This document shows positions 3,301-27,540 of a stretch of 44,300 nt of DNA, one piece after another. The notes below the pieces were generated by a model that saw only the letters and a list, made by a program, of their open reading frames with translations, made no database searches and was not told where the DNA came from. Made by a program: the position numbers and the translations under genes. How positions within the stretch are numbered: position 1 is the first letter of the stretch; each line of letters opens with the position of its first letter. The DNA comes from Tritrichomonas foetus (taxonomy: Eukaryota; Parabasalia; Tritrichomonadida; Tritrichomonadidae), in NCBI GenBank assembly GCA_001839685.1, contig MLAK01000610.1, forward strand, positions 46,524 to 90,823. Reading direction: 5' to 3'.

Positions 3301-3474
3301 ATCATTCAGTCGAAGCATTATTTGTCTATCGTCGCCTAAATTTCCATTTCTCTGAATGTGCATTATCGAAAAAGTTTGGGGAATTGTGTTAACACATTCA
3401 ATTATTTTCCTATTATTACATAAAAAGTTTATTAAATTCCCAGGAATTTCTATACAAAAATCTAGTTTTTTCAT
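328..3474 (-). CDS. Large helical-repeat (HEAT/ARM-like) protein, function unknown
   Basis: An uninterrupted 1,048-residue frame ends in TGA at 328. I do not recognise a family by name. The sequence is rich in Leu, Ile, Asn and Lys, with many amphipathic helices and no signal peptide, no convincing membrane segment and no Cys clusters. The second half (about residues 500-1000) reads as successive helix pairs, which suggests an alpha-solenoid scaffold of the HEAT/ARM kind. The C-terminus has a Pro-rich patch (PDNPPSPFTPSVPD) and then a short basic tail. The start is the first ATG of the frame, and the upstream sequence is AT-rich non-coding. It lies 520 bp downstream of the prefoldin gene on the same strand. 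Alternatives are a karyopherin-like, condensin-like or other adaptor solenoid; profile-profile comparison would decide. The gene itself is near certain, the fold moderately likely, the function unknown. Confidence 0.85.
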   Translation of the reverse strand: MKKLDFCIEIPGNLINFLCNNRKIIECVNTIPQTFSIMHIQRNGNLGDDRQIMLRLNDSQNTLLSQTVRFLHNKEVGFEKIKTLINQSTTANLIATFSFICNWLSFNIKDHAKTSSETYPTIQYAFQLIGHITHKVPPFVLLNGAYDLNWGLDTTHWLIHEFFEPINERITRMRAYFKPFSSYDIMSYYKSICPVESKSKDTENESYLMIDKVVFPAYEVTLEYYYKRLIMNHVPIQDFQPFHYLPNSRAALTRAIIDIIKELNRIRNAKHEELLFAFSCIFVYIYAFTSTNSIDGQALSEFLQSQPFLSPFCLLGMVNNIPVHLYLFNLLSPRELTTNTVMQQTIDSSQYIMADLTNDNEMQPFIEKIPIVLSNYFLYSTPKSDETPLVDDKINDFLSYIHLSSNTLYIKMKSVLGKAREFHLTSVHVHSMGILLLRCIIFSLQRTLGDCAETNMFTPKFCEFVKTVFSVLSTAFVEQLSQKFFEAGQVPLNIMDLSIRGAFRPLIPVIVRFSSNEKIIKFCLKALKEKTIAKSGRFLILKLLSCDYPKINPTLIELIKETEDIFTVINYIDALTNITSVKTFEEANLIEEQRKILINKISAIPKDHSDRSKKMFILQAINSPRQFNELSNNCIRLLEKFYIHELRSMLNEPNESATILSLFILSVHFEDPYNATLIVNHIIENLPSTGPIESNEPSRFELRPYDAYLIIAQKALARLIFNNMAEEAKRLCQAMVPYLQHDPGVLHWLSIFLPKYRHICPFPVLKLLNDVVLGLPVANDYYIIDNDNKERLYKITKLLEENECKLIQDPNVVINEYQSPYEHAFAFSICSLSLTGLSTEEIAELLTEPIYSMYRVWQKRDHAVLACAKLASQMDDEVANKFFEIIFTRKNSDLSLQAGRMFIMNARLSVLTNIIKTVFGMINKDCVKLDFFMKMMLPSYWRLKGDKNIATILLDGLLKSVKKETPKALLEIVIDTVALIYLRLGLYEERKTLISALRDFPPEMREVIASSLIISPDNPPSPFTPSVPDLDNIDIPYIKREISMAKFQ

Positions 3475-3994
3475 AACGCTCGAATAATTGAATTATCAAA
3501 CCGACGAATGATTATGTTAATTATCTCTCTAATGAAAGATGAACAACATTTATTATAAAGATAATAGGAATATGTTTTGGGAATATTTCTAATATTTCTA
3601 TTTTCAACACCTAATTTTTGTTTTTACAAATCCAACATCACAATAATTCCAGTTGGTTTCAAAGAAAAAAAGTCAAAATCGGTTTGATAGATTCTACTCC
3701 AAAAGTAAAAACTATTTCAAGACCTTAAGACGAACTCTAAATAATATCAAATTGAATTGTGATTCGATATTCAACTTGAATGATTCATAATAAGTAATAA
3801 AACAGGAAAGTACGGAATGTTGTGTTTATTAACATTTGTAAAGAACAGTTTGATATTTTCTTGCTTCACAAAAAAAAAAAAAAAATAGACATGTCAAATT
3901 GAAAAATGAAATGAAATGATTTTTTTTGTTTTGCTTTTCGAAATGAAGTGAAATGCATGAGAAAAAATCAATTGTTCATCAAAAAGTGACTTCA
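3475..3994. other. Intergenic spacer, AT-rich
   Basis: About 520 bp between the 5' end of the solenoid gene and the 3' end of the prefoldin gene. It holds a 15-A run near 3871-3885 and AT-rich sequence without a coding frame or RNA gene that I can recognise. The promoter of the solenoid gene must be in its left part, but no clear TCAYWYT initiator lies next to that ATG. Confidence 0.6.
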
Positions 3995-4394: not shown

Positions 4395-4648
4395 TAAAAA
4401 TGTCAAAAAAAAATTGTTCTGATTCACTCTGTTAGAAATCGTCAAGATAAGGTGAAAATGATTATCAAATGAATAATTCGGTGAAATTAAAATAATAAAA
4501 TGTTTTCTTTTAATATGAAATTTTTCAAAAACGAATATGTTTCTTTCGATATATCTAAATAAATATTGGGAAATAAATAATGAATAAAGAAAAGAATGAA
4601 TTTTTTTGGATTTAAATTTTATTCAAATATATTACATTTAAAAATTGC

Positions 4649-7600
4649 TTATTTTGGAGTAACCGCGGCACCTTTTCCAGTTAATCCATTTATGACTGAT
4701 GCATAAGAGTCGATAGTCTCTTTCATCTTTTTAATCCTTTCATCGTGAGTCTTCACGATCTTTCCTATTCTATTTGTGATTCTCTTTGTGTCTTCAATTT
4801 CGACTGCCTTCGAAGCGAGTTCCATGTTCTTGTTTGCCAATTCTGTCTTGACAAAGGCGTCACTTTGTTGGATTTTAGAAGACAAGCTAGAGATTTCTTC
4901 GTTAATTTGAGATAAGTTGAATTTGAGATCGTTGATGGCATCTTCATTAAATGCGGCTGAAGTCGACATCAACTCCTTCATTTTATCTGAATCTGTTGCA
5001 GATGAAGGGCTCAATTTCACTGCAATGATTGCTTTCTTGACATCTTGTTTCAAAGAGTCAATATCTTTCCTTATCTCAGTAATCTTCAAAGAATCAATTT
5101 CTTTCTTTATGTTTAAGATTTGTTGTTGACTATCAACTGGAATGTTCTTTATCATGGATGAGTTGTCGCTTTCAGCAAGATCAAGACCACTCTTCATCTC
5201 GTTTACGGCGTTTTGGATCTGGTATGAAGTGCTTTGGTTAAGAGTTTCTAAATTCTTCTTTATTTGTGCAAACATTGTGTCTTGGCGTTTGACAAAGTTT
5301 TGGAAATCTGCGGCAAGAACGAAATGTTCTTCTTCTTCATGTTCACGGTTTTCAATGTAAAGTTTAATGGATTTAATTGTGTTGGCATGTTTTGTAAGTA
5401 ATTTGGAATGCATGTTTACAGTTTTAGTGAGTTGTGCAGAATCTTTTCGGTCACCATCGATTTCACTTTTAAGTTCGCTGTCGGTAACTTTGAATCCTTC
5501 AACAATGGTACGAAGGTATTCAATCTCGGATTCTACTTTGGTGGATGCAGTCTCAAGTGATTTAATTCTTTCGTCAAGTTTGATGTTTTGGTTGACTGCT
5601 TCTTGGATTGCTTTGAGTTGTCTATTTATGGCCTCTCTGAGGCTTTCTTCCATGTTTTCAATTTCTAAGTGAGTAACTTGGTCTTCTGGACTGATAATTG
5701 TTGTGTTACGTTCCATGGAATGATCAAGTCCATCAAGTTGGTTGTCTTCCAATATATTCAATTTGCTTTCATGTTCCTTCAAAATATTGTTGTGTTGGTT
5801 AAGAGTGTCACGAACAGATTCAAAGAATGATTGAAGTTGTTTCTGTTGTTCATTTGCTTGTTTAAGAGATTTGATGTCTTTGCTTTGCTTTTCAATGTGT
5901 TGAACAACTTTCTTATGAGCTTCAGAGATTTTAGCAAGCTTGTTGTGAATCTTTGGAATTGTGTTGTTTTCGATATTTTCTATGTGTGGCAAAAGTTGTT
6001 TATTAAATTCTTCGATTGTAGTAATTGAAGATTTGATGTCACCTGTTGATGAACTTGATGATGCTGAAGATGATGAATGATGTTGTTCATCAACTTGTTG
6101 AGATAATGAAGCGACTGTTTGACTAAGAACTTCAAATTGTTGAGCTAATTTCTCAATTTTATCCTCAACTTCAGGATTGAGGATTTGAGGAACACTGTTA
6201 TCACTTTCATCTTTGTTGTTCTTATTTAAGTTTTGAATTTCATTTGAAGAAATTGTTGGTTCATTTTTAGCTGCAGTATCGATCTTTAAAGTGAGATCAT
6301 CTAGTTTATCGTTGTGATCATCTTGTGTTTTAGCCAAAGATTCTACTAAATCTTTAATTGAATCAATTTCATGAAGTTTTTCATTCATTGACTCTATTTC
6401 ATCTTTATATTTGGCGATTGAATCTTTCATTTCATCGATTTCAGCTGGGAATCTTTCATCAATTTCATCTGGAATTGTGATTTCACGGGTTTGAACGCTG
6501 TTGTTGTTTTCAATTATATGGGAAAGTGAATCAACCTTCTGTTGAAGAAGTGATATTGATTCAATGATTGAAGATAAATCTTCTGATGTATTGTTGCTGA
6601 TTTCTGTTTGTTCAGTCTTGATTACTCGTTGGTTTTCAGTTTCTTCTTCGCCTTTATTGGCATTGTCTAACATTGAAAGAAGTGTAGATTCGAGAGTTTC
6701 AATGTTTGTTCTATAGCTGTAAATGACGTCCTTCAATTGATCCACGTCATCTTGAGAAAGTTTGCTTTGAAGAGATTCTGAGAATGATTCTACAATCTTC
6801 TTCAAAGATTGAACCTCTTCATTATTATGCTTAATAGCAAATTTGATGGCATTAAGTTCTGTTGATGAAATTTCAGTTCCACTTAATGATTCATTGGTAT
6901 TATCTGTATTTAATAATTGGCCTATCATATCTGCTTTTGAATTAAATAACTTATCAAATGATTCTTTTAGTGAATCAATTTCGCTATGATGCGAATCTGC
7001 TTGAGACTTGATTCGATCAATGATGTCTATTTGTGTGTTGAAGCGTTCAAGAATATCATCGTGTGAAGTTTGAAGTTGTTCAACAAGTGTTTTAAGTTGT
7101 TCAATATCGATATTATTGTCTGTAGTTGTTGACTGTGGTTGAACATCTTTCTTAGCAAGTGGGATTTCAGAAAGATCTTCATCATGTGTCCTGATGACTT
7201 CACTACTGCTGCTACTTAAATCGAATTCACTTTCACTTTCTGGAACTTCAACAGCTTTGAACTTGCTAATAGCGGAGGCTTGTGCATTCAGATATTTAAT
7301 GGCATTGTTTTGAGAAATATTTATGTGTTTAAGGGTGTCTTTAAGACCGATGATATCTGATGTGTTTTGTTGGGAAATATTTTGAATGACATTTAATGTT
7401 TCCTTAAGTAATTGGAGTTCTTCAGAAGCTTCATTTGGAGCATGTGTTTCGTTGATTTTCTCAACAAATTGTTTAAGTGATTCGATTTCGTCTTTAATTG
7501 GATCTATTGTTTCCTTCATTGATGATTGAAGTGAACCGAGTAGTTCATCATTCAATTTATTGAGATAGTTTTCTTTGTCTTCCTCTGCATCATCATCATC

Positions 7601-10600
7601 AAGATTAATATTTCTACTGATGATTGGGAAATTCTCATTTTGGTCATTGACAGATGACATGAGTTTCTGAATGTCTTGAGAATTTTCGTCAATTGTAGAT
7701 TTCATTTGATTGAGATTTTCTTTAATAGTATCGATTTCACCAATTAACTGGTCATCAATTTGATAAGTAATTGAGGCTTCTGGCTGTGATTCAATTCTTG
7801 GCTTGGCTTGGATAGATTCTTGAAGCTGTTGTATTTGTGATTTAAGATTCTCAATTTCTTCAAGAAGCTGTTCACTTTGAATGACTGGATCAGAAATTGA
7901 TTTAGATTCAGATTTAACTGATTTAGGTGATGATCTTGATGAGGATGAAGATTGTTTGGTTTGAATCTCATTGCTTGTAATTGATTCCTCTTCTTCTTTC
8001 TGTTCCTTAAGTAATCCATCAGTGTATGATGAGGAAGAAGAAGAAGAAGAAGATTTGTCTTTAGGTTCTTGTTCTTGAAGGGATTCTTCATTTGTAACAG
8101 ATTCTTCGTTAATTATGGATTTTCTTTCAATTGATGAATTTTCATTTATTGAGTCTTCATTTATGGTGAGCTCTTTTTCTTCTTCTTCAAGGAAATTATC
8201 ATTTGCACTTGAAGATGATAATTGTGTATATGATTCTTCTTGAATTGATTCATTAACAAGAGATTCTTCTTCTAGAATGGATTCTGAATCTGGAAGTGGC
8301 TTAGTGGAAGATGACGAAGATGTGGATTGTGCAGTTTCACATTTAGCATTCATCAAATCAATGGAATTGATCTTATCAATAACATCATTTTGTGTAGAAT
8401 TCAACTGTTCAAGATACTCATTAAGAGATTTAATTTCATCTTTCATATTGTTCATGGATTCCTTAAGTTCTTCGATTTCATTGTCACGTTGTTGAATATG
8501 TTCACTACTTGATGATGATGATTCATGAGTAGATGTTTCATCCTTCATGATTTGAGAAACAAGATCATTGATTGTGGAAGTTTGATCATTGGCATTTTCA
8601 ATCAGCATGTTTTGTGATTCTTGAAGTTGTTGAATTTGTGATTTAAGATTATCGATTTCTTCAAGAAGCCGTTGATGAGCGGGAATTTCTAAGGCTCGCT
8701 GAGATTCTGATTTAACTGATTTAGATGATGAGGAAGAGGATGTTAATGATTTACCTGATTCTTCTTTCATAGATTCTTCTTTAGCGGATTCTTCAACTTC
8801 ATTGATTGATTCAGTTTCATTAGTGGAATTGTGCAATGATGAAGAGGATGATGATAATTTGCCATCAGATGGTATAATTTGATCAAGAGATTTCTGTTCC
8901 ATTAATTCCTTAATATGATTGATTTCATCTTCAAGGGTTTCTAGCTGTTGGTTTGATGATTGAATCATATTTGTATGTTCATTCAGAGTATTAATTATGT
9001 CGTTTTGGCTATCTGTGAATTCAGATAATTTATTGGTAACTGTTGAATCTTCGGAATGTTCATCAATATTTGGTAAGGAAAGCAATGAAACTTTGTTTTC
9101 AAGAGAAATGACTCTGTTATTTAGTTGTTGGATTGCATCCATATGAGAATTAACAGCATCGATTATAGATTTATGATTTTCCATAACTTGAGCAGTTCTC
9201 TTTTCAATTTCAGTGATTGGTCGTGATTGGATTGAATCAACATCTTCATTTTGTTCAGTAAGGCGACGAATAAGTGGTTCAAGGTCATCAAGATGAGATT
9301 GAAGCTGATTAATAACATCAGTATGTGAATTCATTTCATTGATGATTTGTTCAACTTTGTTATTTAATTGTTCAATGTTTTCGGATTTGTCGCTGTCAGA
9401 AGATGATGCAACAGAAACGTCTCTGCTTTGTAATTCGTCTTTGCCATCTTCAGTTCTTTCGCACTCTGATGATTCGCTTTCCACAATTGGGTTACTTGAT
9501 GTTGTGATTTCACTTTCAACTTTATCGCTTTCAGAAGACTCTTGTGATTCATCTTCTACTTTAGAGGAATCGCTATCACTGTTAATTGAAACAATTATTT
9601 CAATATTATCACTTTGGGTTGTTGAGCTTTCTTCATTTTGATTGGCAATATCAGTTGTTGATTCAATAGTTGAAGTTCCTAATATTTCATTTTCAAATTC
9701 AAAAACGCTTTCTTCACTTTGTTGTTCTGATTCTGTTTGAGCTGTCTCGATTGGAATTGGCTTATGTTGAGATGAAGAGCTGTGTGAATATTCATTTAGA
9801 ACAGCTTCGCTTGTGACTGCCTCATTTTCGATTTCTTGATGTTCTGGTTGTTGGCTCATACTAGCTTTGATGTTTTTCAGTTCGTGTTTAATGCATCTGA
9901 TAGATTGTGTTAATTGATCATTATTTTCATGTTCATGCACCAGAGAGTCTTCATCAAGACTCTTATTTTCTGGATTCATTACTTCGTTTTCAAGGTTCCT
10001 TACTTTCTTTTCAAGGTTGCGTAATCTTTCATTTCTCTTCTTTGATAATTCTTGTTGAGCTAGGATCTTCTCGAAAATAAGAATGATTTGTTCCTGCAAG
10101 CCTGTACCTGGTGTTGGACGTTTCAATTGTGGTGATTGCAATGTAGAGATTGTGTCGTTTTCGTTTGTATCTTCTTCTTCGTCACCATTGATGATTGCAT
10201 TCATTAATTCGCCAATATTATTTCCATATTTACCATATGGATCAAGCTTGTTGAGCCTGAATTCGTGCAAGCGGATATAGGATGTTTGACTATTGGATGT
10301 ATCAATGAGTGAGCGAGTTCTGTCAGCAAGTTCATTCAATACTTTGCTCATTGCATCAATATCATATGCATGGATGTGTGAAAGAAGTTCACTGTGTTCT
10401 TTCAAAATATCCTCATGATCACGATTAAGATTCATTAATGCAATTTGCGCAAGCCTTAAAGCACGATAATCCTCATCAATATCTTTGAGAGCTATGATTA
10501 CATTTGGTGGAAGTGCATTCAATTCTTGAAGATTATGTGATTCAGCAAGTTTATCTAATGGTGATGCATTTTCTTCTCTCTTGAATGTTGTTTCGTTAAT

Positions 10601-13600
10601 TTGTGGTGCAAATCTAGAATTCTGTTTAAGGAGTTTGATTTCATACTTCAAGCAGCGAACTGAAATTCTCAGTGATTCGAATTCTTGGGTAAATCTTTCT
10701 GTGTCGAATGTATTGGATTGATCTTCATTAATATTAATATTTCTTGTCAAAATTTCATCTTCAGAGATGTCATTTTGTTGAGAAAGTTGTTCAAGAAGTC
10801 CACTTTGAAGTTTCCTCATTAATTCTTTGATAGCAGCAGTTTGTTGATTCAATAAGTGTTGGAATTTCAAAATTCTTTCAGTTTGTGAATTAGATGTGTT
10901 CACGACATCAGATTGGCTAGCAACAACAGTATTCAATGCAGCTTCAATTTCACTCATTTTATGTTCTAATTCATCAAACGTTTGTTCAACGCGTTTATGA
11001 AGCTCTTCAATTGGTTTCATTTTATCTGCGAAGTTTCTTTGAAGATCCATAACGGCCTTTTCAAGAAGTTTCAATGTTGAATCCATCTTGAATAAGTATT
11101 GGAATCCTTTTGGCTGTCTTTCACCTGATTCACTCATTGTAGCTTGTTCAGCTGATTGTTTAATATCAGGAGAAGTGAATGACTGAGCTGTTTCCATCAT
11201 ATCTTTAATATGTTTGATCTCATACTTCAAGCATCTGATTGTAGATGTAAATTTATTGTTTTGATTTTTGAGATGGGCAATTTCTTCTTCAAGTGAATCA
11301 AAAGCTGGTGGGCTTTCTGATTTTATGGTTTGCTCTTGATCCTCACTTGTAGTAGGCTTAGATGGTGAAGATGGTGATGAGGATGGAGATGTAACTGATT
11401 TATTCTCAAAAACGAGAACATTGTCTTCAACTTGATCTTCTTCTGTTGCTCCAGACGAGATATCGGAAACACTAGTGCCTCTGGTGGTAACTTCGAGATT
11501 TTCTTCTTCTTCTTGAGCAGAAGATGTAGATGATGATGATTCTGAATTGGATTTTTCAGTTGAGTTCAATTGTTCATCAGAATTGTATGACTTGTTAGCT
11601 TGCTCGTTGCTATTCGTCTGAGGAAGCGGCAATTGTTCGATACGATCAGTTGGTTGATTAACAATTGTATGTGGTTGGCCTTCAAGTTGGCTGTTTTCTA
11701 GAACATTGAGTCGATGTTGGTGAGTTTGAATATAAGTAGTTTGACTATTTACATTATCAATAAGTTGCCTTGTTCGAATTGACATTAACTCCATGTATTC
11801 TTGGAATGCACGTAATCGAGGATCAAGATCAAGTGATTCTAAGTGGCTTAATGATCCTCCCATTTCTTCAATAAGTTTGGCATGCTCTCTATTCATATCC
11901 ATCAATGTGATTTGAGAGAGTCTCAAAATACGATAGTCTTCATCAATATCACGCAAGGCTTGAACAATATCTGGAGGAAGTCCTTGTAACTTAGAGAGAT
12001 CGTGAATGTTTGGAATTTCTCCTTCTTTGGCTTTTGAGGAGAAAATTGTATTTCTTTGTGGTTGGCTCTTGATTAGTTTAACTTCATGTTTCAAGCACTT
12101 AAGTGAATCAATAATATGAGTGAGAACCTGTGGTGAAAGTAGGATTGAGTTATTATCAATAGAAACATTGTGATTCTTGAAGTCTGAATCAAATTCTGGT
12201 AAGAAAACGTTTCTTTCTGTAATATAAGGAGAATCATCAAATATGTTGGATCTCCTCATGAGCTGCTTCAATGTAGCTGTGTGTTTATTCAATTGATGTT
12301 GATGTTGATGTATTCTGTCTGATTGATTGTTTGAAGTAACAATAACATTATTTTGAGAAGAAATAATTTGGCTTAATATGTCATTAACATCATCAAATTT
12401 CTCGGTGAATATTTGGTTGGTTTCTTCATTTTCAAGTTTATGCTCTTTAAACTTCTGGCCAAGTTCTTCAACTGGCTTCATCTTGTCTGCGAAGTTTTGT
12501 TGAAGAGTGAGGATTGCTCTTTCTAAAATTCTTAAAGCTGAATCAAATTTGTTCATTCCAGTTTGAATTGCAGGAAGATCAGCATCCGTATAATTTGTAG
12601 CTGGTTGTACTGAGATAGTAACATCTGGGCTTGGTTCTTTCATGTGTTTTTGCATCTGTTTGAATTCATGTTTAATGCATTTAATAGTTTGAGAAAGTTC
12701 TAAAAGTTGAGTTGAGTTATTATTTACAGCCTGTACAATATCAGCAAGGGAATTTTTATTGTTTTCCTGAAGAACTAATTCATTGACTGACTTGGATGAT
12801 TTGGTGGATTTAGCAGAATTGGAGGACTTTGATTTCTCGTCACTTGTTTCATCAAGATTGATATCACGTTTTTCAGGGTCTTGGTGTTCTGATGAAGATG
12901 AGGATGAATGGTTTTCATTGATGCGCTTTGGTTTATTAATGTGCTTCTGATGTTCTTTAGGAGCCTTTGGAGGTGGTGAGGAGGAGGAATCATTTTCATG
13001 CTCGAATTCAAATTCTTCATGGAGTGATTCTTCTTCAACTGCAGCAGAAGAAACAATGTGGGATGAAGATTTGGCTTTACCACTTGTGCTACTTTCTGAT
13101 GAACTGCTTTCTTTTGAATCCTCACTTAATAAATCATTAGAGCTTGATAAGAGTTCTTCAGATGTATCTTTAATAATGATGGAAATTGGCTCCTCATTTG
13201 CGCTCTCTTCATTGGAATCATGTGTATGAGAAACTTCATTGGAATTTGAAGATTTACTTGGAGATGATGAGGATGATGGTCCTGATTGATCAATAAGATC
13301 TAAATTTCTAGTTTGGATGGGTTCTTCATATAATTCAGGCTCTGGTTGTAATCCGCTGTTCTTTACTAATTTCTTAATTATTTTCTTGAGGTAGCCGATA
13401 GACTTGTTCAAATTATCGACTTGATCGTTATTCTTGGCAAGTTTATTCTTGAGATCATTTATATCTCGTTCTTGAGTGATATGAGGAAGTTTTCCGTGAA
13501 CTTCAATTCCATTTCCATGCTCAAGAACACTTAATCTGTTGGAATGAAGCTGAAGATAAGTTGTTTGTGAATTTGCAGTATCGATAAGATCACGTGTACG

Positions 13601-19600: not shown

Positions 19601-22600
19601 GTTTTCTCTTTCGACAAGAGTTTGAATCTTCTTTTCAAGTTCTTTCATTTGTTCAGGTAATGTTTGTAATTCTTTAATCAAATCTTTATCAAGTCTTGAG
19701 CCATACTTAGAATGTTTCCTATTCTTCTTGTGCTTCTTCGATTTCTTATACTCTTGGGAATTTGAATTGTCTGAGTCACTATCTGTATCGCTGCCTTTGG
19801 CTTGTGTGAAAATAATATTGTTGCTATCGTCGTCATTCATCACTTCATTTGGTTCATTTCCTTCAAGTAAATTAAGACGTTCTTCAATTTCTGAAAGTCT
19901 CTTGAATAAGGATTCCCCATAATTGGAACGGAATAAGTCCAAGAATCGGCGTTGAGTATTCACACTTTCAATAGTTTCATTCTGTGAGCCGCTGATTTCT
20001 CTAAGACGTTCTGCCATGGCATTGAGAATGCCTTGAATATCGTCTGATGTTTCTGGTGTTAATAAAATTGATCCACGTTCTTCGATTTGCTCATTAGGCA
20101 AATCAGTGACCTTGTGCTTCTTTGGATTTTGTTGTGAATTTTGGACCATTGTACCGATTTGCTTTTGAAGTTTCTTCACTGATCTCTTCAGTTTCTTAAG
20201 ATCTTTACGAACTTTATTGTTTGGTATTGGTTCATTATTATTTTCATCTTCGTCTGAAGAAGAGCATGATGATGATGACATATCATTCTTGTTATTGTGA
20301 TCTTTCTCGGTTGTTTGTTTGTCAGCTTCATTCCTATATTTGTGGGATTTCCGCTGTTTAATTGTTGTTTGATCTTCAGGATTGTAAAGATATTCATTTA
20401 ATTGTTTCTCAAGGTTATCAACACGTGATCTCAATGAATCGCCATATGTCTGGCGGAATGAGTCCAAATAGCTTCGTTGTGCGTTGACACTATCAACTGT
20501 TTGATTATGGGAGCCAGCTAATGATTGAAGGCGTGCTAAAACTGTATCTAAGATTTTACGTAGGCTATTTAAATCAGTTGGTAATGCATTTCTGCCTTTG
20601 CCTGATTTGTGTATATCATTGTTCTCATTATTTCCTTCTTCATTGCTAGAATTGTCAGAAAGATCAATTCCACGTTCATCATATTGAAGATCATTAATTT
20701 GTTCTTGAAGGCTTTGAATAGATTTGATAGCATTGGATCCTGCTTGTCTTGGGTCAGTATTGGATTTCAGTTGTTCAATTTCATTTTGTAATCTTTTGAT
20801 TGCCTTTTTAATCTTATGGAGTGACTTGGAAACATGATGAGCCTTCTCTTCTGTTGTTTCATCTTTGCTGTGTGAAGAATCAACATCTGAATCTGATGTA
20901 AGTAAGTAATTTTCTAATTCTTTTGTTTCTTCATCGAATTGATCCTGAAGACGGTCGACAATTCCTTCAGCTTTGTTAATTTCATGATTCATAAGAAGAT
21001 TATTTAGTTTATCTTCTAATTCTGAAACACGATCACCTAAGTGAGCTCCATACTTAGAACGAAATGCATCAAGAAATGTCTTTTGCGCGTTAATTGATTC
21101 TACTGCCTTTTGTTGGTTTCCATAAATTTCAGCAAACATGTCACGTAAAGACTGTGATTCAGGAGTCTCAAGATCTGGAATGCATAAATATTCCATCAGT
21201 GATTGAACACTATTTTCGACCAAGGCAACTCTATCAGCAAGAGTGTTATCGCTATCTTCGTCGCTATTATTTCCATCTTGATTCTTTGACTTACTCTTCT
21301 TGTGTTTCTTGTCTTTCTTAGCCTTCTTGTCCTTCTTCGATTTGTGTGAACTAGATGGAGATCCTAAAATTGATGTTTCATTTTCATCTTCATTGGAATC
21401 GTCACTCGAATCGGATTGATCACTTGATTTGCTCTTCAATGGTGATTTTTCTGATGTTGTGGCTGAATCTGCGGATGTGACAGCTTTAGATTTACCTTTG
21501 TTAACAAGTGGTGAAGTATCTTTGTTTGTGGATTCTTCAATATTTTGTTCTTCCAAATTATCCAAGCGTTCTTCATGATCATTGAGCTTATTGTTGATTT
21601 CTTGATAGCTACGACGGAATGCATCCAAAATACTTCTTTGAGCGTTTACGTTGTTAATTGTTTGGTTCTGTGAGCCAGTGAGTGATTGCAGGCGAACCAA
21701 AATCATATTTAAGCTTTGATTAAGATCGTTCAAATCTTGGTTGAACTTGCCATGATTTTGAGGTGATTTGCCCGATTTCTTTGATTTACCTTTGTGATTC
21801 ATATCATCATTATCACTATCACTGGAGCTTCCACTGCTTGTCTTTAAGGAAATATCAATTCCACGCTCAATTCCTTGTCCATACTCAACTTCATGTTGTT
21901 CTTGAAGTTTATTGATTTGTTCTTGGAGATTTTGTGTTGTTAAGATGAGTTTGTTGATTTGGTCAAAGATATTTTCTTCATTTGGATTAATTTTTCCTTC
22001 TCTTATATGTCTAAGTTGTTTTCGCAACTTTTTAATTTGTTTCCTGATCATGCGAATTGATTTTCTACGTTTGCCTGATTTGCCATTAACTGTGTTCTCA
22101 TTTTCATCTTCATTTCTGATTTCGTCTTCATTTTCGTTTTCGTCCTCATCTGATGAGGATGAATGAGTGTGTTTGGATTCTGATTGATCAGATTTTTGTA
22201 CGTCTTCAAATGAATCTGTAGATTCTGGTGAAATTACGCTGCTACGTTGTTTCTTGTCTTTTTTATCTTTCTTTGGTGTTTCATCATCGAGCCGATCCAT
22301 AATTTCATCGATCTTGGAGAATTCTTTATCCAATAAATCATTCAATTTAGTTTCAACTTCAGAAAGGCGCATTCTTTGTGAATCCAAATATGTTCTTTGA
22401 GCATTAACTGCATTGATGGTATTCACTTGATTTCCATAAAGTTCATTCATAAAGTCCGTGTCTACATTTCCTGTAACTGGAGTTTGGGATTTCAATCGTT
22501 TAAGTTGTTTTTCGAGTTTGGAAAGTCTTGCATCATAATTAGTTCGATCAATTTCGTCATCTGATGTTCCGAGCGATTGATCAGATTGATCAGGTACTGA

Positions 22601-25600
22601 GTCAGACATTAAACTGTTGTCTTTATGATGCTTCCTGTGGTGTTTCTTCTTCTTGGATAAGTTGTCATCGGTTGTATCCTTTCCTTTAGTATGTTCTTTA
22701 GCGTCTTTGTGTTTGAGTGGTGATGATGTGGTACCAGGTGGAGAGTCAGCTTCTAATTTATCAATTTTATCTTCAAGTTTATCAATAAGTTCGAATACTG
22801 GTTGACCATACTTCTTACGGAATTGATCGAGATATGAACGTTGGGCATTTACATTATCGATTGCATTGTTTTGGGCACCGGTTAGGGATTGAATACGATC
22901 TAAAACAGCGTTTAGACATTCACGAACATCATCTAAATCTGCATTTTGTTCAAGGTGATTAATTGGTAAACTATGTGTTGCTTCATCTTCACTTGTTCTT
23001 TGTATCTTTTCATCAGTGCTCTTTGACTTACTCTTCTTGTGTTTCTTGTCTTTCTTAGCCTTCTTGTCCTTCTTCGATTTGTGTGAACTAGATGGAGATC
23101 CTAAAATTGATGTTTCATTTTCATCTTCATTGGAATCGTCACTCGAATCGGATTGATCACTTGATTTGCTCTTCAATGGTGATTTTTCTGATGTTGTGGC
23201 TGAATCTGCGGATGTGACAGCTTTAGATTTACCTTTGTTAACAAGTGGTGAAGTATCTTTGTTTGTGGATTCTTCAATATTTTGTTCTTCCAAATTATCC
23301 AAGCGTTCTTCATGATCATTGAGCTTATTGTTGATTTCTTGATAGCTACGACGGAATGCATCCAANATACTTCTTTGAGCGTTTACGTTGTTAATTGTTT
23401 GCGATTGAGCTTTACTTAATGATTGGAGACGAGTTAAAACCATATTCAAGTTCTGGCAGAGATCATCCAATTCTTCTGGTTTCTCAGATGATTTAGAATG
23501 CTTGTGTGATTTACCCTTGTCCCGTTTATAACCGGTTTCATTAACATTTTCATTGTCATTATCACTACTATTCAGGGAAGAGTTATCGTCTTGAATTGAT
23601 TTGATTTTATCTTGAAGATTTTGTGTTGTTGAAATGAGTTTCTTGATTGTTTCGAAAACATTATTTTCTGATGGATTAATTTTTCCTTCTCTTATATCTT
23701 TAATTTGATCTTCAAGGGATTTAATATCTTCCTTAATCTTTCGTAGAGATTTGTGCGAACTTGTATGTTTACTACTATCTTCATCATTTTTGCCTGCCTC
23801 ATCCGAGGATGAAGATGATGAGGGAGAATCTTCACGGTCTTTGTGATGCTTCTTCCTTGATTTTGTGGCAGATTTGGAAGCATCTTCTTTTTCGGCTGAT
23901 TCAATCCTGGAATTAAGTTGTTGAATGATTTCACTAACTTTGTCTAATTCATCATCAAGTTTGGATTCTACATTATTGATACGTCCAACTAAATTATCGC
24001 CATATTTCTTTCTGTAAGCATCTAAATAGGATTTTTGCGCATTTACTGCAGTCATTGTTTGGTCTTGAGTGCTGCAGATTTCACTTAACCTTTCATAAAT
24101 TTCGTCAATTGGTAAATTATTTTCATTATTCAAAATATATTTGATTTTTTCGATTTCTTTTTCAAGCTTTGGTATTTCATTATTACATTGTTGTTTCATT
24201 TCTTCGACTGACTGTGATTCAGGAATGCTTTCTTTCAAATTCTTTATTTCGTTTTGGATTTCTTCGAGTTGATCTTGAAGGTTCTTATTGAATCTTTCTT
24301 GTTCAGAATTGTCATTTGAATTTTCGTTGAGATTTTCGATGTCTTTTTGAAGTTGAGCAATAGCCGCATTTTGCTCGTCTTGTTTATCTTTCAATTTATC
24401 GAATTTCTGTTGAGTTTTATCGTTTCNTTTTGTATTTGAATTTTCTAAATCTTTGATTCTATTTTGTAGTTGTTTAATTTGTTCTTCAACTTGAGAAAGT
24501 GAGCCGTCTTTCTCTTCGTTCTCTTTATCTTGCTTCTTGATTTCATTTTTGAGATTATCGTTAGCTTTGGATAATTCTTCGATTTGATTTTCAATAGAAT
24601 CCTCATTATTCTTTAATTTCTCGATTTCTTTCTGGATTGATTTTTCATTATCTTTGAGTTCTTTATTTGCCTCCTTCAGTTTTTTATTGGAATCTTTCAA
24701 TTTTTCAATATCTTGTTTCAATTCCTCTAATTCTTCATCGAGAAGTAGATTTGGAGCCGATCTTTCAACAATGTTGCTGTCTATTTTCTCGCTTGTGTTT
24801 TCTATTTCATTTTTGAGCTGGTCGATTCTGTCACTCAATTCTTTGTCAGCTGCAACGAGTTTCGATTTGAGGCGCTTCAATTCTTCCTTGAAATCATCGT
24901 TTGTCATTTCATTCTTTAAATCCTCAGCGAGCTGCTGGAGCTCAGGATGGGCCTTCAAACCATCCAGTTCACTTTGGATTTTGTTGTGAAGAATATCTTG
25001 AACTTCCTTGAATTTCTGGAAATCATTCCGAATATCCTGCTCAGTCAATTGATTTTGAACCTGCTTGTTCGTCTTATTTTGCTTGTTCTTGAATTCATTG
25101 AAAGAATGTAATAAATCCGAATCTGCCTTCGATAACTCTGATTTTGCATTATCAATACTTTCGTGTGCCTGCGAAATTTTCTTGTCGAGCGAGGAGGCGC
25201 CACTCTTGAGTTTGTCGAGTTTTTGATTTGTTTCGTCCAAATCGTCCTGCATGGCCGCGGTGTCGTGGATAATGTCAACGGCACTTTTGAAAGCCTCCAG
25301 ATCGTTTTTAATCTGTTTAATATCGCCGGAAAATGAATTCCATTTCGATCGATCCATATCTGGAACAAGTTTAAGCTTGACTAACTCGATTTTGTCATGA
25401 ACTGCTTGAATTGATGCGTTCATTGTTGCTAATGTCTCCAGATTGTCGTTATATCCTTTATTCAATTGATCGATATCGATTTTAATGCAAGCCATATTTG
25501 CCTCAGTTTGTTCTTTGAATGTGATAAATGATTGATCTGCTTTTTTCTTTCCGCTTGATGGGAGTGGAAGAGACTTCGGGCTTTGTGGATTTTTCATATG

Positions 25601-25948
25601 TTCAATCACGTCATCAAGATCGGAACGAATCTGTGAAATTTCTGTAAAATCGTTTCTGTTAATTTCTTCCTTTAAATTTTTAACCATAATTTGCGACATA
25701 TCAAATAATTTATCAAAATCGGCGGGATTGTATTGGTCGAAAATTTGATTTTTAGATTTTTGATCGAATCTTTGTGCAATTTGTGTGATGTCGTTTGTAA
25801 ATTGTTTATTTTCGGGGTTGCATGATTTTAGAGATTGGAGTAAAGACTTAATGAAAGCTTGCTGACTGACAACGATCTCCTGCATCTTTCCGATGTGGTG
25901 ACCGATGTAACTCCCTTGTGCGTCCGAGGGAGCTCCTGAGCCTTCCAT
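4649..25948 (-). CDS. Giant modular coiled-coil protein, 7,099 residues
   Basis: One open frame of 21.3 kb without introns encodes 7,099 residues. Order: an N-terminal segment (about 1-130) with a short Pro/Lys linker; a classical coiled coil rich in Lys, Glu and Leu (about 150-620); zone A with eight NAQ-type repeats and Lys-rich or Ser/Asp-rich linkers (about 630-2030); zone B/C with six alternating pairs of two conserved modules (about 2285-5240); zone D with looser repeats in Ser/Glu-rich linkers (about 5240-6550); and a C-terminal coiled coil ending TGKGAAVTPK. No signal peptide, membrane span or catalytic motif is visible. If it were continuously helical it would span about 1 micrometre at 0.148 nm per residue, an upper bound because the linkers look disordered. 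I infer a cytoskeletal filament or scaffold, for example of the costa or axostyle; this is not shown by the sequence. Ambiguous bases occur at 23366 (Ile/Met) and 24427 (first codon position, probably Arg). Confidence 0.93.
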   Translation of the reverse strand: MEGSGAPSDAQGSYIGHHIGKMQEIVVSQQAFIKSLLQSLKSCNPENKQFTNDITQIAQRFDQKSKNQIFDQYNPADFDKLFDMSQIMVKNLKEEINRNDFTEISQIRSDLDDVIEHMKNPQSPKSLPLPSSGKKKADQSFITFKEQTEANMACIKIDIDQLNKGYNDNLETLATMNASIQAVHDKIELVKLKLVPDMDRSKWNSFSGDIKQIKNDLEAFKSAVDIIHDTAAMQDDLDETNQKLDKLKSGASSLDKKISQAHESIDNAKSELSKADSDLLHSFNEFKNKQNKTNKQVQNQLTEQDIRNDFQKFKEVQDILHNKIQSELDGLKAHPELQQLAEDLKNEMTNDDFKEELKRLKSKLVAADKELSDRIDQLKNEIENTSEKIDSNIVERSAPNLLLDEELEELKQDIEKLKDSNKKLKEANKELKDNEKSIQKEIEKLKNNEDSIENQIEELSKANDNLKNEIKKQDKENEEKDGSLSQVEEQIKQLQNRIKDLENSNTKXNDKTQQKFDKLKDKQDEQNAAIAQLQKDIENLNENSNDNSEQERFNKNLQDQLEEIQNEIKNLKESIPESQSVEEMKQQCNNEIPKLEKEIEKIKYILNNENNLPIDEIYERLSEICSTQDQTMTAVNAQKSYLDAYRKKYGDNLVGRINNVESKLDDELDKVSEIIQQLNSRIESAEKEDASKSATKSRKKHHKDREDSPSSSSSSDEAGKNDEDSSKHTSSHKSLRKIKEDIKSLEDQIKDIREGKINPSENNVFETIKKLISTTQNLQDKIKSIQDDNSSLNSSDNDNENVNETGYKRDKGKSHKHSKSSEKPEELDDLCQNLNMVLTRLQSLSKAQSQTINNVNAQRSXLDAFRRSYQEINNKLNDHEERLDNLEEQNIEESTNKDTSPLVNKGKSKAVTSADSATTSEKSPLKSKSSDQSDSSDDSNEDENETSILGSPSSSHKSKKDKKAKKDKKHKKSKSKSTDEKIQRTSEDEATHSLPINHLEQNADLDDVRECLNAVLDRIQSLTGAQNNAIDNVNAQRSYLDQFRKKYGQPVFELIDKLEDKIDKLEADSPPGTTSSPLKHKDAKEHTKGKDTTDDNLSKKKKHHRKHHKDNSLMSDSVPDQSDQSLGTSDDEIDRTNYDARLSKLEKQLKRLKSQTPVTGNVDTDFMNELYGNQVNTINAVNAQRTYLDSQRMRLSEVETKLNDLLDKEFSKIDEIMDRLDDETPKKDKKDKKQRSSVISPESTDSFEDVQKSDQSESKHTHSSSSDEDENENEDEIRNEDENENTVNGKSGKRRKSIRMIRKQIKKLRKQLRHIREGKINPNEENIFDQINKLILTTQNLQEQINKLQEQHEVEYGQGIERGIDISLKTSSGSSSDSDNDDMNHKGKSKKSGKSPQNHGKFNQDLNDLNQSLNMILVRLQSLTGSQNQTINNVNAQRSILDAFRRSYQEINNKLNDHEERLDNLEEQNIEESTNKDTSPLVNKGKSKAVTSADSATTSEKSPLKSKSSDQSDSSDDSNEDENETSILGSPSSSHKSKKDKKAKKDKKHKKSKSKNQDGNNSDEDSDNTLADRVALVENSVQSLMEYLCIPDLETPESQSLRDMFAEIYGNQQKAVESINAQKTFLDAFRSKYGAHLGDRVSELEDKLNNLLMNHEINKAEGIVDRLQDQFDEETKELENYLLTSDSDVDSSHSKDETTEEKAHHVSKSLHKIKKAIKRLQNEIEQLKSNTDPRQAGSNAIKSIQSLQEQINDLQYDERGIDLSDNSSNEEGNNENNDIHKSGKGRNALPTDLNSLRKILDTVLARLQSLAGSHNQTVDSVNAQRSYLDSFRQTYGDSLRSRVDNLEKQLNEYLYNPEDQTTIKQRKSHKYRNEADKQTTEKDHNNKNDMSSSSCSSSDEDENNNEPIPNNKVRKDLKKLKRSVKKLQKQIGTMVQNSQQNPKKHKVTDLPNEQIEERGSILLTPETSDDIQGILNAMAERLREISGSQNETIESVNTQRRFLDLFRSNYGESLFKRLSEIEERLNLLEGNEPNEVMNDDDSNNIIFTQAKGSDTDSDSDNSNSQEYKKSKKHKKNRKHSKYGSRLDKDLIKELQTLPEQMKELEKKIQTLVERENCQKEIIPMNFDEEDYEGLQTDEKFSKLHKEVVILAKNFIVLQNDVIDNKLLGRDLKSEIEELKKQNKDHKSDVESYSAYSEVPEMKEFIEETNDKIRKLQKDFLKLKNTGNLNEINELVNSIKCMKHEIKKIISGQTPVANTHKQPGSPSINKSTFQALENNLNEEPINYDEADLPQVINVLKDFDDKLRVLERAVLELQHYYVEKMKPISELKQKLEQHEEQNIEAFDKIDDRFKEVEDALSQVIGSHQIVIETSNNHSERLMRHQKQINLHTAALKRLKFKDGKDETLRRELDKLKKKLAESLGDETFLEGIQERDVHLSDDDSNMDSNSDSSAGSPMKTFTPTKDKNILGSPSGQPDYKVISSTFNNLPLDINGLPTDILAALKNLDDDYRAVRRAQIDLMTLNRKHTKALERHEASITALESLDLEPRFDAFTQYINALTGKTKELVDNVNSQTTHLQLHQHRLNELEGKKGKGAKYIYQDRELSDIKDNLIRINYEMPDEQMLMQDEESSSGSPVDLQSLKEMIKNLKKEFYNYINNNKIENIPKISDSDSDNESNSSSSSEDEYEYVTDSEDENDEEEIYERGIELSNEEDQEGITENNADNTGKKKKVKKVTKKKKSQNPERTAEDNDLSKEGKKRKRVKKQKKDKTPMNHSAESQNDKILKKGNSTVNNDDYNHLVYSMKCVKYELKKVKSTLSKLAIPEFAQGTTSYADADLNTMRNALTDMDSKMILIEKSILALQNNYFEILKPTNELAEKFEEHKVENNESFNEVHDRISELDNILTQVISSQQNIIDTSNSQTEYIRKHSHQINLHTSALRELNSKVNGPYSPSTIPNNSQIRRELDMIKNKLYQLTNDEDLLRELSPEAVERGITLHSDDDGDKSPVFKVNIDGNHVIPGLSPDNSKDPYSPTQARTSHDMSSLSSLPPDVLKALREIDEDYRLLRQSQIHLINENRIHKKILEKHNIFVDSITSLDLEPRLVIIQDTLGSFVDRMVNVIDTTNSHTTYIRRHEHRLNEHLGTTEDGIEKEDMRALRQLQPIIADLQTLKDEVALLKRTLANAPNHRSASSSEKSSPKSVKSHESAKALSSSSSTSSFFENEASTSSKAQQIHEQLLSESSDSKLNEELSQSSQQSVSSKRSVSSKQSKSSKRPSKSSKYSMKSKNEPIEVEDEDSSSESNVQERDTTINLQSDSSSSNSRNNNDYRNDDDNTQKINQLIKSVRCIKHAIKKLTANVKPSDHQTCVTLEAKVFATDYSQAELPEIRAGMTDMDAKLILMERSVLELQHNFTDKMKPAIELKELFEIHESENIASFNEVDDKINDVEAYVNTLATSQSEIIETTNNQSERIMRQQSLLNKQAAAIRILAKKLSLTRKGSSAPGKYDVQDRSITLNHSSDSDILDLDDSEKQIIKEKSGTFNYDLSKGFEEQINNKEGENESRDFSALNALPPNVLLVLKAIDEDYRRLRLAQIDLMNLNQEHERHLGKHDTSIDHLESLDLDERLNAIQTYIRELAEKTVKLIDTSNSQTTYIQNHQHLLNMLNKDSPISPPQPGSLYIEDNKFDSKIEHPLNQDQSPHNDQEHYMNPVTMSNNTPLTNDEISNLKVSIRCLKHEMKILRDYIKSGVPINNDLPSVQKRGIKTLNDSLQELTQEYLDVAHSPENITQQKVDSLVESMKCVKHELSKMKHKLSKFATPGNEDENTEQISYSNADLQTMRNGLTDMDAKLRLIERAIVELQLNFADKMKPAEELQRLFKIHLSDNEQSFQSMNDKLADFEAALSQVANSQAQVIDTVNNQSGRLSSHQHQINKNTAAIRTILNKGNFDSDTLPSSEITKEIIEIHKELDMIKQQLLSDDPITSRAVLINSEYPNDDEKENADNQESPISDDGTFKPFVSKPIPERKSNETPSTSKDLGALLSQHNIDALNALPKDIYDTLRNIDDDYRQLRLSQIALMNMNREHSRMLQSHENFLEHLDDLELDPRLMAIQDYLGEMSLRTRDLIDTANSQTTYLQLHSNRLSVLEHGNGIEVHGKLPHITQERDINDLKNKLAKNNDQVDNLNKSIGYLKKIIKKLVKNSGLQPEPELYEEPIQTRNLDLIDQSGPSSSSSPSKSSNSNEVSHTHDSNEESANEEPISIIIKDTSEELLSSSNDLLSEDSKESSSSESSTSGKAKSSSHIVSSAAVEEESLHEEFEFEHENDSSSSPPPKAPKEHQKHINKPKRINENHSSSSSSEHQDPEKRDINLDETSDEKSKSSNSAKSTKSSKSVNELVLQENNKNSLADIVQAVNNNSTQLLELSQTIKCIKHEFKQMQKHMKEPSPDVTISVQPATNYTDADLPAIQTGMNKFDSALRILERAILTLQQNFADKMKPVEELGQKFKEHKLENEETNQIFTEKFDDVNDILSQIISSQNNVIVTSNNQSDRIHQHQHQLNKHTATLKQLMRRSNIFDDSPYITERNVFLPEFDSDFKNHNVSIDNNSILLSPQVLTHIIDSLKCLKHEVKLIKSQPQRNTIFSSKAKEGEIPNIHDLSKLQGLPPDIVQALRDIDEDYRILRLSQITLMDMNREHAKLIEEMGGSLSHLESLDLDPRLRAFQEYMELMSIRTRQLIDNVNSQTTYIQTHQHRLNVLENSQLEGQPHTIVNQPTDRIEQLPLPQTNSNEQANKSYNSDEQLNSTEKSNSESSSSTSSAQEEEENLEVTTRGTSVSDISSGATEEDQVEDNVLVFENKSVTSPSSSPSSPSKPTTSEDQEQTIKSESPPAFDSLEEEIAHLKNQNNKFTSTIRCLKYEIKHIKDMMETAQSFTSPDIKQSAEQATMSESGERQPKGFQYLFKMDSTLKLLEKAVMDLQRNFADKMKPIEELHKRVEQTFDELEHKMSEIEAALNTVVASQSDVVNTSNSQTERILKFQHLLNQQTAAIKELMRKLQSGLLEQLSQQNDISEDEILTRNININEDQSNTFDTERFTQEFESLRISVRCLKYEIKLLKQNSRFAPQINETTFKREENASPLDKLAESHNLQELNALPPNVIIALKDIDEDYRALRLAQIALMNLNRDHEDILKEHSELLSHIHAYDIDAMSKVLNELADRTRSLIDTSNSQTSYIRLHEFRLNKLDPYGKYGNNIGELMNAIINGDEEEDTNENDTISTLQSPQLKRPTPGTGLQEQIILIFEKILAQQELSKKRNERLRNLEKKVRNLENEVMNPENKSLDEDSLVHEHENNDQLTQSIRCIKHELKNIKASMSQQPEHQEIENEAVTSEAVLNEYSHSSSSQHKPIPIETAQTESEQQSEESVFEFENEILGTSTIESTTDIANQNEESSTTQSDNIEIIVSINSDSDSSKVEDESQESSESDKVESEITTSSNPIVESESSECERTEDGKDELQSRDVSVASSSDSDKSENIEQLNNKVEQIINEMNSHTDVINQLQSHLDDLEPLIRRLTEQNEDVDSIQSRPITEIEKRTAQVMENHKSIIDAVNSHMDAIQQLNNRVISLENKVSLLSLPNIDEHSEDSTVTNKLSEFTDSQNDIINTLNEHTNMIQSSNQQLETLEDEINHIKELMEQKSLDQIIPSDGKLSSSSSSLHNSTNETESINEVEESAKEESMKEESGKSLTSSSSSSKSVKSESQRALEIPAHQRLLEEIDNLKSQIQQLQESQNMLIENANDQTSTINDLVSQIMKDETSTHESSSSSSEHIQQRDNEIEELKESMNNMKDEIKSLNEYLEQLNSTQNDVIDKINSIDLMNAKCETAQSTSSSSSTKPLPDSESILEEESLVNESIQEESYTQLSSSSANDNFLEEEEKELTINEDSINENSSIERKSIINEESVTNEESLQEQEPKDKSSSSSSSSSYTDGLLKEQKEEEESITSNEIQTKQSSSSSRSSPKSVKSESKSISDPVIQSEQLLEEIENLKSQIQQLQESIQAKPRIESQPEASITYQIDDQLIGEIDTIKENLNQMKSTIDENSQDIQKLMSSVNDQNENFPIISRNINLDDDDAEEDKENYLNKLNDELLGSLQSSMKETIDPIKDEIESLKQFVEKINETHAPNEASEELQLLKETLNVIQNISQQNTSDIIGLKDTLKHINISQNNAIKYLNAQASAISKFKAVEVPESESEFDLSSSSSEVIRTHDEDLSEIPLAKKDVQPQSTTTDNNIDIEQLKTLVEQLQTSHDDILERFNTQIDIIDRIKSQADSHHSEIDSLKESFDKLFNSKADMIGQLLNTDNTNESLSGTEISSTELNAIKFAIKHNNEEVQSLKKIVESFSESLQSKLSQDDVDQLKDVIYSYRTNIETLESTLLSMLDNANKGEEETENQRVIKTEQTEISNNTSEDLSSIIESISLLQQKVDSLSHIIENNNSVQTREITIPDEIDERFPAEIDEMKDSIAKYKDEIESMNEKLHEIDSIKDLVESLAKTQDDHNDKLDDLTLKIDTAAKNEPTISSNEIQNLNKNNKDESDNSVPQILNPEVEDKIEKLAQQFEVLSQTVASLSQQVDEQHHSSSSASSSSSTGDIKSSITTIEEFNKQLLPHIENIENNTIPKIHNKLAKISEAHKKVVQHIEKQSKDIKSLKQANEQQKQLQSFFESVRDTLNQHNNILKEHESKLNILEDNQLDGLDHSMERNTTIISPEDQVTHLEIENMEESLREAINRQLKAIQEAVNQNIKLDERIKSLETASTKVESEIEYLRTIVEGFKVTDSELKSEIDGDRKDSAQLTKTVNMHSKLLTKHANTIKSIKLYIENREHEEEEHFVLAADFQNFVKRQDTMFAQIKKNLETLNQSTSYQIQNAVNEMKSGLDLAESDNSSMIKNIPVDSQQQILNIKKEIDSLKITEIRKDIDSLKQDVKKAIIAVKLSPSSATDSDKMKELMSTSAAFNEDAINDLKFNLSQINEEISSLSSKIQQSDAFVKTELANKNMELASKAVEIEDTKRITNRIGKIVKTHDERIKKMKETIDSYASVINGLTGKGAAVTPK
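5600..10230 (-). repeat. Zone D: degenerate Asn/Gln-core repeats with Ser/Glu-rich linkers
   Basis: This is the last part of the giant gene before its C-terminal coiled coil. At least seven degenerate copies of the shared core are visible: IINEMNSHTDVI, IIDAVNSHMDAI, IINTLNEHTNMI, LIENANDQTSTI and VIDKINSID between about 9350 and 8360, then AIKYLNAQASAI (about 7260-7320) and ILERFNTQIDII (about 7005-7075). They are separated by very acidic Ser/Glu linkers. A longer sub-repeat also occurs twice: a SxSPKSVKSES-like or SKSVKSES stretch followed by LLEEI(D/E)NLKSQIQQLQES, near 8600-8720 and 7800-7930. Copy conservation is weaker than in zones A and B/C. Confidence 0.7.
10235..19100 (-). repeat. 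Zone B/C: six alternating pairs of two conserved helical modules
   Basis: Two module types alternate. B (about 115 residues) starts near ADLPxMRxGLTDMD, contains NFADKMKPxEEL and a Gln/Asn core like VIDTSNNQSERI, and ends NxHTAAIRxL. C (about 100 residues) starts LPPxVxxAL, contains IDEDYRxLRLxQIxLM, then SLDLDPRL, and ends IDTSNSQTTYI..HxHRLN. B copies lie near 18755-19100, 17115-17460, 15480-15820, 14125-14470, 12250-12595 and 10805-11105. C copies lie near 18180-18495, 16525-16830, 14960-15265, 13520-13825, 11695-11995 and 10235-10525. The period is roughly 1.4-1.8 kb. Modules are strongly conserved while linkers vary in length and sequence, so purifying selection on the modules is likely. 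The last B copy lacks the ADL start. Confidence 0.85.
21283..21664 (-). repeat. 382-bp direct repeat, copy 1
   Basis: This segment reads identically, base for base by eye, to 23020-23401 except for the N at 23366. The offset is 1,737 bp, exactly 579 codons, so both copies stay in the giant gene's frame. It encodes residues of about 1429-1555, a Lys-rich linker plus an A-type core. Identity stops abruptly on both sides. Confidence 0.93.
23020..23401 (-). repeat. 382-bp direct repeat, copy 2
   Basis: Partner of 21283-21664, encoding residues of about 850-976 of the giant protein. The only difference is the ambiguous base at 23366, where copy 1 has A on the plus strand. Beyond the copy the two units are still related but diverged (for example the shared EGKIN-encoding stretch near 23673-23697 and 21984-22008, at a different offset of 1,689). 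Confidence 0.93.

Positions 25949-26412: not shown

Positions 26413-27540
<1,128 letters not shown>

What the first reader, a model, noticed from the sequence alone, without database searches (positions are those of the whole stretch)
4649..25948. Giant single-exon modular protein of 7,099 residues
Seen: one uninterrupted 21.3-kb frame with ordered zones: N-terminal coiled coil, eight A repeats, six B-C pairs, degenerate D repeats, C-terminal coiled coil. Known: trichomonads own large striated or fibrous organelles (costa, axostyle, pelta), and the costa proteins reported so far are mostly uncharacterised coiled-coil proteins. Inference: this could be a repeat-based structural ruler, up to about 1 micrometre long if fully helical, whose modules set a period along a filament. 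I know of no described family with this combination of modules.
Basis: partly seen in the sequence, partly recalled or inferred. Interest (0 to 1): 0.88.

Follow-up and report, generated by a model that had tools for sequence, protein, structure and literature searches.

The report
Giant beaded scaffold protein family
One unbroken 21.3-kb reading frame, in what is very likely the genome of the cattle parasite Tritrichomonas foetus, would encode a 7,099-residue protein of repeated beads predicted to be helical; it shares its N-terminal head with at least four other genes of that genome and likely works as a flexible cytoskeletal scaffold rather than a rigid ruler.

Summary
In detail: one open frame (4649-25948, minus strand, 7,099 codons, about 807 kDa) with eight A, six B and six C modules and a degenerate zone. 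The interpretation changes in four ways. (3) It is not alone: four other genes of the genome share its N-terminal head (6,240; at least 5,384; 1,880; 1,715 residues; a sixth is possible), and three head-bearing relatives lie in public data. (4) Linkers are long, irregular and mostly hydrophobic-poor, so a rigid 1-micrometre ruler is unlikely. No Pfam, NCBIfam or PDB match was meaningful for the parts tested. Best reading: a flexible multivalent scaffold of the trichomonad cytoskeleton; location and partner are inferred. New variant of a known kind (giant coiled-coil scaffolds).

The parts
4649..25948 (-). whole open frame, 7,099 codons plus stop
25004..25948 (-). N-terminal head, residues 1-315, shared with four other genes of the genome and with P0001-P0003
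   Evidence: with the giant left out, the profile of the others scores it 123 bits over residues 4-315; best control (shuffled or unrelated coiled coil) below zero
24101..25591 (-). N-terminal coiled-coil-like zone, residues 120-616
   Evidence: sequence; heptad power above background in 3 of 4 blocks
23954..24100 (-). module A1 (617-665)
23282..23440 (-). module A2 (837-889)
22760..22906 (-). module A3 (1015-1063)
22286..22450 (-). module A4 (1167-1221)
21545..21703 (-). module A5 (1416-1468)
21002..21133 (-). module A6 (1606-1649)
20396..20542 (-). module A7 (1803-1851)
19871..20011 (-). module A8 (1980-2026)
18761..19084 (-). module B1 (2289-2396)
18179..18469 (-). module C1 (2494-2590)
17117..17452 (-). 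module B2 (2833-2944)
16523..16810 (-). module C2 (3047-3142)
15488..15817 (-). module B3 (3378-3487)
14957..15244 (-). module C3 (3569-3664)
14129..14464 (-). module B4 (3829-3940)
13517..13804 (-). module C4 (4049-4144); AlphaFold2 with 12 B/C rows: two helices, pLDDT 86.5, pTM 0.39
12254..12589 (-). module B5 (4454-4565)
11693..11980 (-). module C5 (4657-4752)
10817..11104 (-). module B6 (4949-5044)
10235..10513 (-). module C6 (5146-5238)
6959..9385 (-). degenerate D zone, residues 5522-6330, core-like SQxxxIxxxN copies
   Evidence: windows chosen by motif
4652..6091 (-). C-terminal coiled-coil-like zone and tail, residues 6620-7099; part of the tail also in the 6,240-residue relative on C773
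   Evidence: E 2.7e-6; phmmer E 3.6e-9 in an 18-sequence set
5696..21865 (-). 16 arginine motifs R[GDNSEA][ITV]x[LIV], Arg at 1362, 1759, 2433, 2704, 2992, 3305, 3509, 3981, 4361, 4579, 4823, 5069, 5509, 6112, 6488, 6747; none inside an A/B/C module
   Evidence: local shuffles mean 3.7, max 11 of 2,000; D/E/S in the 12 residues after it 0.42-0.75 against 0.30 overall
9881..19231 (-). 10 copies of the Cys-bearing basic helix (C[LIVM]K[HY][EA]), Cys at 2240, 2805, 3345, 3730, 3798, 4424, 4618, 4906, 5099, 5352
   Evidence: 10 of the protein's 22 Cys; at least one before each of six B modules
23021..23365 (-). recently duplicated segment, copy 1 (862-976)
   Evidence: identical to copy 2 in protein and DNA over these residues
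21284..21628 (-). recently duplicated segment, copy 2 (1441-1555)

Best explanation
The 7,099-codon frame is one of at least five genes of this genome with the same N-terminal head, and its product likely works as a long, flexible, multivalent cytoskeletal scaffold in which beads predicted to be helical would self-associate or bind partners while short motifs in the linkers would dock a shared protein. Shown: the frame, the repeated modules, the common head, the repeated arginine motif and Cys-helix, their recurrence in relatives (the Cys-helix in the giants only), and the arginine motif at one matching place in three outside relatives and at a second in two of them. Predicted: the C module is two long helices of about 45 residues (confident secondary structure, unresolved packing), while most of the linker of the one B-C pair folded came out without structure. 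Inferred: the head anchors the protein to one site; the beads make side-to-side or partner contacts; the outward C..[HY]E face of the Cys-helix and the arginine motif are docking sites; the place of action is the trichomonad-specific filament system (costa, parabasal filaments or the attachment of the recurrent flagellum).
For: Same-genome relatives by head: C514 3.4e-7, C773 2.2e-6, C853 2.4e-6, C381 1.6e-3, each at the start of a long frame; the reverse search from the C853 head finds C381 6.7e-15, this gene 5.6e-8, C514 2.1e-4, C773 0.009. In leave-one-out profiles the five score 123-286 bits while the best shuffled or unrelated coiled-coil control stays below zero. A-zone query hits C773 (6.8e-5) and C514 (2.8e-4). 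Outside relatives P0001-P0003 (E 1.9e-112, 2.9e-70, 2.7e-66). Arginine motif on proteins it was not derived from: 15 in the C773 protein (1,000 shuffles: mean 4.7, max 13) and 7 in the C853 protein (mean 1.25, max 6). Against the C853 protein, one site aligns in P0001, P0002 and P0003; at a second site P0002 and P0003 keep the motif and P0001 only its ER. Cys-helix: 10, 14 and 9 copies in the three giants. Highest 19-residue hydropathy mean of the giant 1.17, so no clear membrane span. AlphaFold2: helices 9-55 and 58-103 in C4.
Against: No localisation, expression or binding data. The arginine motif does not exceed the shuffle maximum in the C514 protein (11 against 11), the C381 protein (4 against 6), or P0001, P0002 and P0003 (4, 2, 2 against 5, 3, 5). 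The loose pattern also occurs in 14 background proteins at 1.2 per 1,000 residues (11 in 9,061, five of them in one LRR-type protein) against 2.3 in the giant. Two of the three genome-wide pattern matches that I could read outside the family looked like chance. B-A homology was not above controls. A single unaligned head (P0002) did not find the three giants, and the leave-one-out test used an alignment made with the left-out row. Two searches with B-C stretches of the giant found no relative among 767 and 651 scored candidates of similar length. The B-C pair model is poor (pLDDT 54). A cytoskeletal role is argued from architecture and lineage only.
Confidence: 0.5

Rival explanations
1. A rigid repeat-based ruler: modules stack end to end and set the striation period of a filament such as the costa.
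For: Ordered repeats and heptad periodicity in B modules and in most blocks of both ends; the T. foetus costa is striated and costains are described as helical and probably coiled-coil (PMC13071381, passages seen).
Against: Irregular module spacing (451-625 residues between B starts), linkers of 81-309 residues, only 1,623 of 7,099 residues in A/B/C modules; costa bands listed in that review are 26-135 kDa, far below 807 kDa.
Confidence: 0.12
2. A tether or matrix protein of the Golgi, centrosome or atractophore, comparable in role to the large coiled-coil protein P477 of Trichomonas vaginalis.
For: Size, coiled coils and absence of recognised catalytic domains resemble what is written of P477 (PMC13071381, passage); long flexible tethers with docking motifs fit such a role.
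Confidence: 0.2
3. A low-constraint repeat protein whose length reflects runaway duplication; the modules matter little and only head and tail are functional.
For: Each of the three giants carries at least one identical internal duplication of 114-193 residues, and module numbers differ widely between relatives.
Against: 34 residues stay invariant across six B-C pairs that are only 37-42% identical to pair 4, the frame stays open, and the same motifs recur in distant relatives.
Confidence: 0.1

Closest known systems
Costains of the T. foetus costa (costain-1, -2, -3)
   Same: Same organism (very likely); described as predominantly helical and probably coiled-coil, with only software-level likeness to myosin, Centrosomal Protein 2 or SMC (PMC13071381, passages)
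   Different: 44 hypothetical costa-fraction proteins are mentioned there; whether the giant is one of them is unknown
P477 of the T. vaginalis atractophore
   Same: Large trichomonad coiled-coil protein proposed as a scaffold (PMC13071381, passage)
   Different: Smaller if its name gives the mass (my inference); sequence not available, no module comparison possible
FAZ10 of Trypanosoma brucei
   Same: Giant cytoskeletal protein of a flagellate, needed to attach flagellum to cell body (PMC5358337, abstract and section titles)
   Different: Unrelated lineage; sequence not compared; no claim of homology
Plakins, nesprins and spectrins
   Same: Giant linkers built from repeated helical modules (recalled)
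   Different: No spectrin, plakin or CH match in Pfam; modules here are separated by long linkers, mostly hydrophobic-poor

Membership tests
Spectrin/plakin/nesprin family | spectrin repeats, plakin repeats or CH domains recognised by Pfam | tested here: not met
   no such family listed at E 1 and none of any kind at its cut-off, on three pieces that cover the whole frame
Golgins | C-terminal GRIP, GRAB or transmembrane anchor | tested here: inconclusive
   no Pfam match; highest 19-residue hydropathy mean 1.17; short anchors can be missed
Intermediate filament proteins | central rod recognised by Pfam Filament | tested here: not met
   no match in the giant; the relative on C381 scores 19.4 bits, below the cut-off of 40
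Costa proteins (costains) | presence in purified costa | not testable with these tools
   costain sequences and costa mass-spectrometry lists were not at hand (the costain paper asked for is not held)
Head family defined here (C220, C514, C773, C853, C381, P0001-P0003) | N-terminal head of about 300 residues | tested here: met
Head family defined here (C220, C514, C773, C853, C381, P0001-P0003) | arginine motif above shuffles | tested here: inconclusive
   above every shuffle in the giant (16; maximum 12; the pattern was written from this protein), C773 (15; 13) and C853 (7; 6); equal to the maximum in C514 (11); below it in C381, P0001, P0002, P0003
Solved coiled-coil structures | sequence kinship to a PDB chain | tested here: inconclusive
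   none at E 1 for residues 2151-4650 and for the C853 protein; head profile A6 gives matches that look like coiled coils of many kinds (best gp26 1.4e-5); module profile A4 best 8.8e-4 to sc-apCC-6-SLLA, by its name a designed coiled coil

The most novel reading that the evidence does not exclude
Trichomonads carry their own class of giant scaffold proteins, defined by a common head, helical beads and a private docking code (VQTRDIxLxE-type motif plus the CLKHE helix), and the same motif on an LRR-type protein and a C2-like protein wires these into one large cytoskeletal assembly such as the costa or the flagellar attachment.
Probability: 0.3. Interest if true: 0.78.

Novelty: new variant of a known kind. 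Interest (0 to 1): 0.55.

Why it matters
Trichomonads build large striated organelles from proteins that homology has mostly failed to assign. A head domain and two short motifs that recur across a set of giants give a handle: they let relatives be looked for in other parabasalids, and the arginine motif can be tested as a peptide bait. If the motif has one partner, that partner would be an entry point to the composition of these organelles.

Full report
OBSERVATION. The minus-strand frame 4649-25948 is open for 7,099 codons, while the other five frames of the stretch hold 291 to 1,004 stops. Base composition differs by codon position (0.47/0.30/0.28 GC). Predicted mass is about 807 kDa and net charge (K+R minus D+E) -397. 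Two X residues come from single N bases. Whether one transcript covers it is unknown: the KV-1 genome paper (PMC11415386, passages seen) reports genes up to 29,276 bp but exons only up to 14,942 bp, so a single exon of 21.3 kb is not annotated there.

ORGANISM. An IMP dehydrogenase elsewhere in the same 63.7-Mb genome matches PDB chain 1ak5_A from residue 1 to 503 with 1143.8 bits. 1ak5 is, from recall, the Tritrichomonas foetus enzyme. The genome is therefore very likely T. foetus.

MODULES. Iterated profiles recover eight A, six B and six C copies. Profile-profile comparison shows that B and C are one family (E 1.7e-9, score 55.1, best of 30 coiled-coil controls 34.2), with D19, L32 and N84 of C4 invariant across 12 copies. 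C-A is above its controls (38.1 against 18.6), B-A is not (29.0 against 34.2). D-zone windows were chosen by the motif and so prove little. The other five B-C pairs are 37-42% identical to pair 4, with 34 invariant columns.

LINKER ELEMENTS. Linkers between modules are 81-309 residues long, with 8-22% Ser (7% in modules) and 11-32% ILVMFYW (32% in modules); their acidic content (13-22%) is close to that of the modules (16%). The 16 arginine motifs lie outside A/B/C modules; local shuffles give a mean of 3.7 and a maximum of 11 in 2,000 (4.2 and 12 in 1,000). Exactly one lies in each of 10 of the 11 linkers between B1 and C6; the C3-B4 linker has only a near match. In the A zone 2 of 7 linkers hold one. 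The expression was written after looking at this protein, so the fair tests are on others: C773 protein 15 (shuffle maximum 13), C853 protein 7 (6), C514 protein 11 (11, not exceeded), C381 protein 4 (6, not exceeded); P0001, P0002, P0003 hold 4, 2, 2 (5, 3, 5, not exceeded). Fourteen background proteins hold 11 in 9,061 residues, five of them in one LRR-type protein. In the alignment of the C853 protein with P0001-P0003 one motif site is kept in all four; at a second, P0002 and P0003 keep it and P0001 keeps only the ER. The Cys-helix occurs 10, 14 and 9 times in the three giants and not in the five shorter proteins; 10 of the giant's 22 Cys lie in it. In a heptad reading its I/L residues sit at a and d while Cys and His/Tyr face outward (my reading of the sequence), which suggests a contact surface.

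FAMILY. Searches of the genome with the head, the A zone and the tail found four further frames that begin with the same head: C773 (6,240 residues, closed), C514 (5,384 known residues, then an N gap), C853 (1,880) and C381 (1,715). A sixth, on C94, is possible (E 0.05 from the giant's head; its own head finds only C381 at 2.1e-5 and a chance-level match; by eye the first 70 residues fit). Leave-one-out profiles give the five 123-286 bits against negative controls; the left-out sequence had taken part in making the alignment. One unaligned test, the head of P0002 alone by phmmer, found C853, P0001, P0003 and C381 but not the three giants. A B-C query found only this locus (7 matches), and a C773 module query found only C773 and C514 (29 matches), so the repeats diverged while head, Cys-helix and arginine motif stayed. 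Of 7,980 candidates scored from 5.8 billion proteins, three matched the profile of the two short genes at E 10 or better; their organisms are not given.

STRUCTURE. With 12 rows the C4 module is predicted as two helices (9-55, 58-103; pLDDT 86.5, pTM 0.39), relative packing unresolved. The B-C pair with 6 rows is poor (pLDDT 54), with helices in B and C and a mostly unstructured linker. B modules (6 of 6) show one heptad phase along their length; C modules show little over the whole length, but each half peaks at a period of 3.45-3.55 in the five copies examined of six.

MECHANISM. The architecture (anchoring head, helical beads, long Ser-enriched linkers carrying as a rule one docking-type motif each in the B-C zone, coiled-coil tail) fits a flexible multivalent scaffold. 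The irregular spacing and the share of linker argue against a rigid ruler. Place of action in the trichomonad filament system is inferred from lineage, size and composition. An LRR-type protein on the contig of the C381 gene carries three good arginine motifs and a C2-like Lys/Ser-rich protein on C328 carries one; this hints at a shared partner, no more.

NOVELTY. No Pfam model reached its cut-off on the giant, the C853 or the C381 protein, and no NCBIfam model on the head, one B-C pair, P0001 or P0002; the C514 and C773 proteins were not scanned. PDB sequence searches gave nothing or matches that look like coiled coils of many kinds. Giant coiled-coil scaffolds are a known kind; this head, module and motif set is not described in what I could search.

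Noticed in passing
window 21284-21628 and 23021-23365; likewise in the C514 protein (1079-1271 = 1667-1859) and the C773 protein (1062-1175 = 1714-1827): Each of the three giants holds an internal duplication of 114-193 identical residues, 579-652 residues apart (C773 also two short tandem ones near 5475-5572); recent conversion and assembly artefact cannot be told apart.
   Followed up: partly
L060:4029-6998 (-), contig C381, near the C381 relative: LRR-type protein (LRR_14 E 9.8e-7, below cut-off) with three good arginine motifs in its Ser/Lys-rich part.
   Followed up: partly
L061, contig C328: Lys/Ser-rich protein with one VQTRDIQLDEE motif before Ser runs and a C-terminal part that looks C2-like by eye.
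   Followed up: no
window 26413-27540: Actin gene directly upstream on the same strand (E 6e-128) with nine single ambiguous bases, perhaps collapsed copies.
   Followed up: no
window 29678-30300: Array of 28-base units with a 121-base N gap (29824-29944) inside it.
   Followed up: no
window 41820-43094: Protein with four saposin-B stretches.
   Followed up: no
window 1-217: Tandem array of 13/22/35-base units at the window edge.
   Followed up: no
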